Shown here piece after piece: positions 28,250 through 53,854 of a stretch of 64,000 nt of DNA; the stretch's first letter is position 1, and every line of letters starts with the position of its first letter. Below the pieces are notes generated by a model. That model ran no database searches and was not told the origin of the DNA. It saw only the letters and a list, made by a program, of their open reading frames with translations. The DNA is taken from positions 2,764,548 through 2,828,547 of the forward strand of contig OY282370.1 in NCBI GenBank assembly GCA_958295745.1, in the 5' to 3' direction. The DNA is from an uncultured Acidimicrobiia bacterium. Lineage in GTDB: Bacteria; Actinomycetota; Acidimicrobiia; Spongiisociales; Spongiisociaceae. The position numbers and the translations under genes are program-made.

Positions 28250-28425
28250 GCGCACACCCGGCTATGAGATCGTCGATACACGACTTCGAATTCCCCGGTC
28301 CGGTCGGAGATCCGAGAACCTCCCCCTCTCGGAAAACCGCCCGCCCGCCCCGCTAAAACCGCCCGCCGAAAACCGCGAAAATCGCCGGAAATCAGCCCCC
28401 CCTGCGGGCCCCTTACCGTGTTTGG

Positions 28426-28600
28426 GTATGTCCCCGTGGGATGATTCGGGGATGGTTGCCCGTCACGGCGGGTAGGGCTGCCGGGCCCTGTCAGATGATG
28501 ACTTGGGGAGTGGTGCCGCCCGTCGTGTTGGGTGTGGTTGACCTCTAACAGGAACATGCACCGGTGAACCGTACCGGGTTTTCGGGGCTTTGTAAGGTGG
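28426..28600 (+). ncRNA. Candidate IS110 bridge RNA in the left end
   Basis: IS110-group elements encode a guide (bridge) RNA in the noncoding left end. Here the stretch begins with a 5' hairpin TCCCCG...CGGGGA (about 28431-28452) enclosed by GGG/CCC pairs, followed by two internal GC-rich regions that could be the target- and donor-binding loops. The predicted start (about 28426) lies 7 bp after TACCGT, which becomes a -10 box when the ends are joined in a circle. The 3' end is a guess. The guide-loop pairing was not resolved. Confidence 0.5.
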
Positions 28601-28668
28601 TTGACGGCAGCTGCGCCTGTGGGCGGGTGATTTTCGAGGAAGATCGTTCGCTGGTGAAAGGAGCCAGG

Positions 28669-29883
28669 ATGAGTTCGGGTGAGATGGCGGTGTTTGTGGG
28701 GGTGGACGTAGCCAAAGAAGAACATTTCTGCCAGGCGATAGGCGCTGAGGGAACCGAGCTGTTCGCCCGGGCGGTGGGCAACAACGAAGCCGACCTGGAA
28801 CAGATGATCAACCAGGCCGAGAGGTCGGGGCGGGTGGTGCTGGTCGTCGATACGACCAGCTCGGGTGCTCATCTGTTGCTGGGGGTAGCCGCCCGCAGAG
28901 CAATACCCGTAGCGTATGTGACCGGCCTCCAGATGCGCCGAGCGGCGGAACTGTACGCAGGTTCGGCCAAGACCGACCCCCGAGACGCGTTCGTGCTGGC
29001 GGACTTCGCCCGCCGCAACGCCGATCGTCTGACCTGGGTAACGATCACCGACGAGGTACTGACCCGGATGCGGGTCCTGTCGGGCCACGACGAAGACCTA
29101 GCAGCCGACTCGACCCGGACGATCAACCGCCTCCGGGACGCCCTGGTGTCTGTATCCCCTGGTCTGGAACGTGTTCTGGGTTCCAAACTAGCCCAGAAGG
29201 GCGTCCGAGCGGTGCTGCTGCGCTGGCCTGTGCCCACAGCCATGCGAGCAGCGGGCAAGACACGAATACGAAACCTGCTGAAAAAACACTATCCCAACAA
29301 ACCCCACAAAGCCGTCGAGCTGACCGACCGGATCTGGGCGGCGCTCGGCGCCCAGACCCTCACCCTGGCGGGCGAAGCCACCTGGGGAGAGGTCATCACC
29401 AAAAAGGCAGACGCACTCGAGCGTATCACAGCCGAACGAAAAGAACTCACCGCGGCCATCGAGGAGGCCTTCACCGCCCACCCTTTAGCCGAGATACTGA
29501 TTTCCGTACCAGGGATCGGCGTCCGGACCGGCGCCCGCATCCTGACCGAAGTCGGTGACCCACACCGCTTCGCCAACGGATCCCGCCTGGCGTCCTACGC
29601 CGGCCTAGCCCCCGCCACCCGCCGATCCGGCCGAACCATCAACACCACCAGACGCAACCCAGGCGGGAACCACCGACTCAAAAACGCCATGTACTGGACC
29701 GCGTTCTCAGCCTCCCAACACGACCCACACGCCCGGGCCTACTACCAACGCAAACGAACCGAAGGCAAACGCCACACCACCGCCGTCACCCACGTCGCCC
29801 GCCGCCGATGCGACCTCATACTCGCCGTACTCAAAAACCAAACCCTCTACAACCCACCCGAACCAGCCCCCGAACCCGTTTGA
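28669..29883 (+). CDS. IS110-family transposase (bridge-RNA-type recombinase)
   Basis: This 404-residue recombinase has an N-terminal RuvC-like DEDD domain with VFVGVDVAKEEH (first Asp at residue 13) and TDPRDAFVLADFARRN. A middle coiled region follows, and a C-terminal transposase_20 domain with ILISVPGIGVRTGARILTE and RLASYAGLAPATRRSG, the latter carrying the probable catalytic serine. The ATG at 28669 is chosen because AAAGGAG lies 5 bp upstream; 35 further upstream codons are open but overlap the noncoding left end. Full length for the family and with no internal stop, so likely active. Confidence 0.92.
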   Translation: MSSGEMAVFVGVDVAKEEHFCQAIGAEGTELFARAVGNNEADLEQMINQAERSGRVVLVVDTTSSGAHLLLGVAARRAIPVAYVTGLQMRRAAELYAGSAKTDPRDAFVLADFARRNADRLTWVTITDEVLTRMRVLSGHDEDLAADSTRTINRLRDALVSVSPGLERVLGSKLAQKGVRAVLLRWPVPTAMRAAGKTRIRNLLKKHYPNKPHKAVELTDRIWAALGAQTLTLAGEATWGEVITKKADALERITAERKELTAAIEEAFTAHPLAEILISVPGIGVRTGARILTEVGDPHRFANGSRLASYAGLAPATRRSGRTINTTRRNPGGNHRLKNAMYWTAFSASQHDPHARAYYQRKRTEGKRHTTAVTHVARRRCDLILAVLKNQTLYNPPEPAPEPV

Positions 29884-29984
29884 CAAACCGACAGGAACAC
29901 TCCCCCACCGCCACCACCAGTATCGGATCACGCAGGACACACGCGAGCGGTCCGTGACCTGTGGGTCTTGACTGCCCCTGCGAG

Positions 29985-30148
29985 GCGTCGGTCACTGACA
30001 CCCGCATCGTCTTTCGTCGGCGCGGCGCCCATGAACGGGCCGTCCGTTCCGCCGGGGCGGGACCCCGATATGATCACCGCCCTCCGGTACGGCAGTGATG
30101 TTTGTGATCGGTATCTATCACTATACGGTATCCTTATGACAAGGACAA
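29985..30148 (-). repeat. Dispersed promoter-palindrome-hairpin element, copy 6 (interrupted by IS110)
   Basis: Read on the minus strand, this has promoter TTGTCC (30143-30148), 17-bp spacer, TATAGT (30120-30125) and palindrome ATCACTGCC...GGCGGTGAT (30073-30099). Copies 5 and 6 share ACAAACATCACTGCCG and GTGATCATA. The GC-rich box is not clear here. The 3' part of the copy appears to lie on the other side of the IS: the minus strand of 28361-28388 matches copy 5's CGGCGATTTTCGCG tail in about 26 of 28 positions. 28250-28360 holds nothing else recognised. Confidence 0.65.
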
Positions 30149-30163
30149 CCCCCTTGTCGGCGC

Positions 30164-53298: not shown

Positions 53299-53320
53299 CC
53301 CGAGAACTGCGGCCCCCCGC

Positions 53321-53541
53321 CGAGAACGCGAAAATCGCCCGCCGCCTGGCCGCCCCCTCTGGGCCCAGCCCCCACCTCCGCCACTCAGATCGTTATCTCG
53401 GTGCCGGCGCGTGGGCCGGGCCTCGGTACAAGGGGTGAACCGAAGTGAGATCCCGATTATGATCACGGCGCTCTCTAGAAACCGGCAGTGATGTTTGTGC
53501 TTCGGTAACTATCATTATACAGCATGGCTGGGACAATTCAA
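53321..53541 (-). repeat. Dispersed promoter-palindrome-hairpin element, copy 5
   Basis: On the minus strand: TTGAAT (53536-53541), 16-bp spacer, perfect TATAAT (53514-53519) and palindrome ATCACTGCCGG...GCGCCGTGAT (53462-53492). A GC-rich box follows with GGCCCACGCGCC (53405-53420), GTGGCGGAGGTGGGGG, and GGGCCC in the place of the usual hairpin, ending in GGCGATTTTCGCG. It is the only copy whose transcription runs toward the start of a gene, the amidohydrolase. The adjoining gap 53542-53854 contains a hairpin GCATCC-GCCAAGA-GGATGC (53691-53709) and the ribosome-binding site of the HpaB-like gene but no other feature I can name. Confidence 0.7.
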
Positions 53542-53854
53542 GACCCTTGTTTCGGGTTTGCGGGATCGGAGCAGCGCGTCGAGGGGCAGTCGGCGGTAGG
53601 ACGGCGGCGGGCCAGCGGCGGGCCGACCTGCATCACAGGTCCAACCGGCAGACCTGCGGACTCCGCGGTGCGAGGGGCTAAAGTACCCGAGCATCCGCCA
53701 AGAGGATGCCGGACAACGGCGATTGTTGCCGGCCGGTCGTCCGCCGAACAGGTTTTCGGCTATCGACCGACGGCCCGGGGGTTGTATCGCCCGGCGCCTC
53801 CGAGAGTAATAGGCTGCCGACCCCGGCCGTTCCCGATCAGGAGATCACTGAACC

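What the first reader, a model, noticed from the sequence alone, without database searches (positions are those of the whole stretch)
28404..29979. IS110 ends form a promoter only when joined in a circle, pointing into a bridge-RNA region
The right end carries TTGACT at 29968-29973 and the left end TACCGT at 28414-28419. Joining the ends at the CT core gives TTGACT, 16 bp, TACCGT, reading into the 265-bp noncoding left end that starts with a stable hairpin. Recent work on IS110 recombinases describes exactly this layout: a circular intermediate switches on a guide (bridge) RNA. The sequence prediction is specific and testable.
Basis: partly seen in the sequence, partly recalled or inferred. 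Interest (0 to 1): 0.7.

Follow-up and report, generated by a model that had tools for sequence, protein, structure and literature searches.

The report
IS110 element with circle-assembled guide-RNA promoter

Summary
The element is an IS110-group insertion sequence, 28412-29900 (1,489 bp), not 28404-29979. Five full-length copies in the same genome, plus empty target repeats, fix both ends and show no target duplication. The true right end carries a perfect TTGACA (29880-29885, overlapping the recombinase stop codon). Joined to the true left end it sits exactly 17 bp from TACCGT (28414-28419). All 27 same-clade loci with a readable right end (40-100% protein identity) have TTG(A/G)C-17/18 bp-TAnnnT across the joint and no good -35 box in the integrated left flank; random joints of window DNA give this in 10 of 200,000. 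The left end folds as a bridge RNA: 5' hairpin, target loop, donor loop. All four guide segments match their DNA partners, and own pairings beat swapped pairings (p 1/5001 to 2/2001). A promoter at the circle junction plus a bridge RNA is already published for IS621/IS110. Possible small twist: donor and target share only one core base (24 of 27 loci differ at the second), unlike the shared CT of IS621.

The parts
28412..29900 (+). complete IS110-group element (1,489 bp), CTTACCGTG...CAGGAACAC, no target duplication
   Evidence: alignment of five full copies in the same genome and empty target repeats
28669..29883 (+). IS110 recombinase ORF, 404 aa; PF01548 + PF02371; D13, D61, D103, D106 and S320 stand in the catalytic motifs (the position of IS621 E60 is D here)
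29880..29885 (+). -35 box TTGACA, overlaps the stop codon TGA (29881-29883)
   Evidence: TTG(A/G)C in all 27 clade-1 loci with a readable right end, overlapping the stop codon in all but two
28414..28419 (+). -10 box TACCGT (TAnnnT), 17 bp from TTGACA when the ends are abutted
28424..28461 (+). bridge RNA 5' stem-loop
28464..28527 (+). bridge RNA target-binding stem-loop
28481..28490 (+). left target guide (LTG) CCGGGCCCUG, matches the left target CGGGCC-CT
28505..28510 (+). right target guide (RTG) GGGGAG, pairs with CTCCCC at the right joint
28530..28612 (+). bridge RNA donor-binding stem-loop
28547..28558 (+). left donor guide (LDG) AACAGGAACAUG, same as the right-end donor ACAGGAACA 29891-29899
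28592..28599 (+). right donor guide (RDG) GUAAGGUG, pairs with the joined donor CACCTTAC
29891..29900 (+). left donor half-site (right end of the element) ACAGGAACAC
28402..28411 (+). left half of the target, CTGCGGGCCC, part of a genomic repeat
   Evidence: empty counterpart L121
29901..29920 (+). right half of the target, TCCCCCACCGCCACCACCAG, same repeat

Best explanation
This is an IS110-group insertion sequence. The recombinase excises it as a circle whose ends are directly abutted (inferred). That puts TTGACA from the right end 17 bp from TACCGT of the left end and creates a sigma-70-type promoter absent from the integrated copy (shown in sequence; activity inferred). The promoter would transcribe the left end as a bridge RNA and, with no terminator found in between, the recombinase mRNA as well. 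The RNA's first loop pairs with both halves of a GC-rich repeat of the host genome and its second loop with the joined element ends, so that the recombinase inserts the circle at GGGCCC|NCCCCC without duplicating the target.
For: Pfam IS110 domains; PDB hits IS621 8wt6 E 3e-13 and ISCro4 9t56 E 4e-14. Ends fixed by five copies and empty sites. TTG(A/G)C-17/18-TAnnnT at the joint in all 27 clade-1 loci, best -35 in the integrated left flank mostly 1-3 of 6, once 4; 10 of 200,000 random joints; no plus-strand sigma-70-like site in the integrated region. Three-stem-loop fold, 97.4% of cells paired, slid controls 34-48%. Guide pairings beat swapped pairings: RTG-RT z 6.6 p 1/2001, LTG-LT z 3.6 p 2/2001; RDG-RD p 1/5001, LDG-LD p 1/5001.
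Against: No transcript, circle or transposition was measured. The -10 TACCGT matches TATAAT at only 3 of 6, and its TAC also belongs to the donor half-site, so its conservation has a second reason. Copy L059 sits at a poorly matching left target. Rfam gives no hit. Some of the permutation signal reflects differences between clades rather than independent events; within the window's own clade RTG-RT alone is not significant (p 237/2001), because most targets there are runs of C.
Confidence: 0.88

Rival explanations
1. One reading: the element runs 28404-29979 and TTGACT 29968-29973 is the -35 box.
For: TTGACT and TACCGT lie 16 bp apart when joined at CT, and CCCCTGCG occurs at both proposed ends.
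Against: All other copies end at the base equivalent to 29900; 29901 onward is genomic target repeat.
Confidence: 0.02
2. The TTGACA at the right end is conserved for another reason (stop codon, recombinase binding, donor geometry) and the left-end RNA is made from another promoter, for example by read-through from outside.
For: The box overlaps the TGA stop, and TTAC is part of the donor half-site paired by the RDG. The -10 is weak.
Against: The stop explains only TGA, and TTG(A/G)C persists in L143 and L153, where the stop lies 38-44 bases away. Spacing stays 17-18 bp in diverged ends. The same layout is experimentally active in IS621 (PMC11208160) and in elements cited in PMC11187229.
Confidence: 0.1
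3. An IS1111-group element (guide RNA downstream, subterminal inverted repeats).
For: Recombinase with the same Pfam domains.
Against: The long non-coding end is upstream (257 bp against 17 bp); no subterminal inverted repeat: the longest match between the ends is 7 bp and internal.
Confidence: 0.02

Closest known systems
IS621 and IS110-group bridge RNA elements (Durrant et al. 2024, PMC11208160; Hiraizumi et al. 2024, PMC11208158)
   Different: 404 aa against 328 aa; the E60 position is D; the -35 box overlaps the recombinase stop codon; the right end is only 17 bp after the stop; donor and target share one core base instead of CT; different guides and GC-rich targets
ISEc21 seekRNA element (IS110 family, PMC11187229)
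   Same: ends directly abutted in the circle, junction promoter, no target duplication, upstream guide RNA
   Different: different target and host; not compared by sequence here
IS110 relatives on Streptomyces and Rhodococcus plasmids (L134, L135, L137)
   Same: same end architecture, TTGAC over the stop codon, same loop layout
   Different: 40-42% protein identity; 18-bp spacer; donor base 2 is A or G with matching RDG

Membership tests
[quoted passage not shown]
   PF01548 1.2e-39, PF02371 3.7e-24; D13, D61 (D for E), D103, D106, S320 in the corresponding motifs
IS110 group (against IS1111) | long non-coding left end, short right end | tested here: met
   257 bp upstream, 17 bp downstream of the ORF
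IS1111 group | subterminal inverted repeats of 7-17 bp and downstream guide RNA | tested here: not met
   no such repeat at the ends; non-coding region upstream
bridge RNA | 5' stem-loop, then two stem-loops with internal loops | tested here: met
bridge RNA | target-loop guides match left (identity) and right (complement) target | tested here: met
   the base after GGAACAC (T/A/G) changes with the RTG base (A/U/C) from copy to copy
bridge RNA | donor-loop guides match the element's two ends | tested here: met
   RDG GUAA(G/A/U/C)G with end C(C/T/A/G)TTAC
circle-junction promoter | -35 in the right end, -10 in the left end, correct spacing only when joined | tested here: met
   (sequence level)
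circle-junction promoter | transcription from the joint | not testable with these tools
   no RNA data
IS621-type core | same CT dinucleotide in donor and target | tested here: not met
   donor CC, window target CT by its flanks; 24 of 27 clade loci differ at base 2

The most novel reading that the evidence does not exclude
This IS110 clade recombines without a shared dinucleotide core: donor C-N and target C-C, C-T, C-A, C-G or T-G share at most one base in most loci, each loop reads its own second base, and the crossover consistently falls between core positions 1 and 2 (left joint = target base 1 + donor base 2; right joint = donor base 1 + target base 2). That would mean a strand-exchange geometry or repair outcome different from IS621.
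Probability: 0.25. Interest if true: 0.5.

Novelty: new member of a known kind. Interest (0 to 1): 0.33.

Why it matters
It gives a clean natural case, inside one genome, of guide segments and their insertion sites changing together, and it adds a diverged IS110 clade with well-fixed ends, guides and promoter. If the one-base core is real, such recombinases may accept donor/target pairs that IS621 does not. The general mechanism itself is already published.

Tried and rejected
A CT core shared by both ends (first assumed, then rejected: the base before TTACC covaries with the RDG and belongs to the donor). The idea that the tandem left-end fragment in L058 arose by use of the LDG DNA as a false donor: the joint lies 6 nt further on, so nested insertion followed by deletion between copies fits better. 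Rfam scans of the element and of the target repeat: no hits. Viral contigs: none; genome contigs: five weak matches, 29-37% identity. L125, L138, L163, L166 and L167 have no readable right end next to the ORF and were left out of the joint test.

Full report
The observation. The left end is non-coding and folds well. The element's right end, however, is not at 29979.

Ends of the element. The host genome (G000) holds five full copies of this element (87-100% identical DNA) and one truncated copy. Aligned with their flanks, they share sequence from CTTACCG (28412) to GGAACAC (29900) and nothing beyond. The flanks are themselves repeats. Copy L057 lies in ...CCGGCTTCGCCGGGCCCT | element | GCCCCCGCCGCCACCACCAAC, and close relatives of that repeat are found uninterrupted...CCGGCTTCGCCGGGCCCTGCCCCCGCCGCCACC..., at L065, L073, L075, L078 and L089. 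This fixes both ends to the base, with no duplication. The window copy's own target resembles the uninterrupted repeat L121, CTGCGGGCCC|TCCCCCACCGCCACCA. TTGACT at 29968-29973 is therefore outside the element.

The joint promoter. With the true ends abutted the circle reads CCCGTTTGACAAACCGACAGGAACACCTTACCGTGTTTGG: TTGACA, 17 bp, TACCGT. TTGACA overlaps the stop codon of the recombinase. In clade-1 relatives from many genomes and plasmids (40-100% protein identity) TTG(A/G)C sits at the same place, over the stop codon in all but two, and TAnnnT follows 17-18 bp later across the joint in all 27 loci with a readable right end; the integrated left flanks offer 1-3 of 6 matches to a -35 box, once 4. 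In a second, more distant clade (34-39% identity; L144-L149, L154) the right end also has TTGACA over the stop, but the exact joint was not fixed, so the spacing was not scored reliably. Random joints of window DNA give TTGAC-16/18-TAnnnT in 10 of 200,000 cases. The pattern scan finds no sigma-70-like site on the plus strand of the integrated region and no terminator between the left end and the ORF. Promoter activity is inferred, not shown.

The RNA. The left end folds into a 5' stem-loop (28424-28461), a target stem-loop (28464-28527) and a donor stem-loop (28530-28612). On nine diverged sequences the structure keeps 97.4% of cells paired, with 11 cells changed on both sides (shuffle mean 4.1, 0 of 500 as high); sliding the partners drops pairing to 34-48%. 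The structure was derived from the same alignment, so the slide control flatters it somewhat.

Guides. Target loop: LTG CGGGCCCU / CGGGUUCC / CGGGUUGCC varies between copies in step with left flanks CGGGCCC / GGGATCC / GGGCTGCC, and the RTG base in GGGG(A/U/C)G varies in step with the first base after GGAACAC (T/A/G). Across 32-33 non-identical loci, own pairings beat swapped ones (RTG-RT z 6.6, p 1/2001; LTG-LT z 3.6, p 2/2001); in the second clade five of seven RTGs pair 8 of 8. Within clade 1 alone RTG-RT is not significant (p 237/2001), because most targets are runs of C; LTG-LT there is p 43/2001. Donor loop: the LDG equals the right end (ACAGGAACA, AGGGACA or AGGGGCA by lineage) and RDG GUAA(G/A/U/C)G complements C(C/T/A/G)TTAC; p 1/5001 each. 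In L059 the left target matches poorly, and in L058 a 152-bp left-end fragment precedes a complete copy.

Known context. Circular intermediates with a promoter across the joined ends, and a left-end bridge RNA with target and donor loops, are published for IS621 and relatives (PMC11208160, PMC11208158); abutted ends, junction promoter and absence of target duplication for ISEc21 and IS1111 elements (PMC11187229). That some insertion sequences target extragenic repeats is also known (PMC1525189). The element is thus a new member of a known kind.

A difference. In IS621 the CT core is in both donor and target and pairing to it is strongly preferred (PMC11208160). Here the donor is C-N with N read by the RDG, the target's second base is read by the RTG, and the two differ in 24 of 27 loci; the first base is the same in 26 of 27. 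Left joints carry the donor's second base, right joints the target's. This may be a real mechanistic difference or a matter of where the core is drawn; only recombination assays can tell.

Noticed in passing
window 28375-28411 + 29901-30150 (interrupted copy) and 53317-53559 (L099); elsewhere L093-L122: A roughly 240-bp, mostly intergenic repeat with 30 or more copies in this genome, barely found in the rest of the family (one 50-base match in 14 other genomes), no Rfam hit. It has a conserved hairpin GATCACCGCC..TCTAGA..GGCGGTGATG and, on the minus strand, a conserved promoter-like TTGNNN-17-TATA(G/A)T that would read through the hairpin (16 of 30 copies at 10/12 or better, 0 of 30 after shuffling). 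It could be a multi-copy small RNA gene or a mobile repeat.
   Followed up: partly
G000 loci L006-L011: A second, diverged IS110 lineage (356-358 aa; right end CTTGACATAGGAGCT) inserts into the same repeat about 15 bp further along (CCCCCACC(G/T)CC|CACC), also with TTGACA at its right end and an LDG-like GATAGGAGC in its left end.
   Followed up: partly
L058 (G000:C1:1110022-1111674): A 152-bp left-end fragment ending inside the donor loop is followed directly by a complete copy at one target, as if a nested insertion had been trimmed by recombination between copies.
   Followed up: partly
window 28557-28585: The window copy's donor-loop tip is 13 nt longer (CACCGGUGAACCGUACCGGG) than in the other copies in the genome.
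   Followed up: no
L138, L163, L166, L167: Several relatives have broken recombinase ORFs but left ends with matching donor guides; they may be decaying or movable in trans.
   Followed up: no
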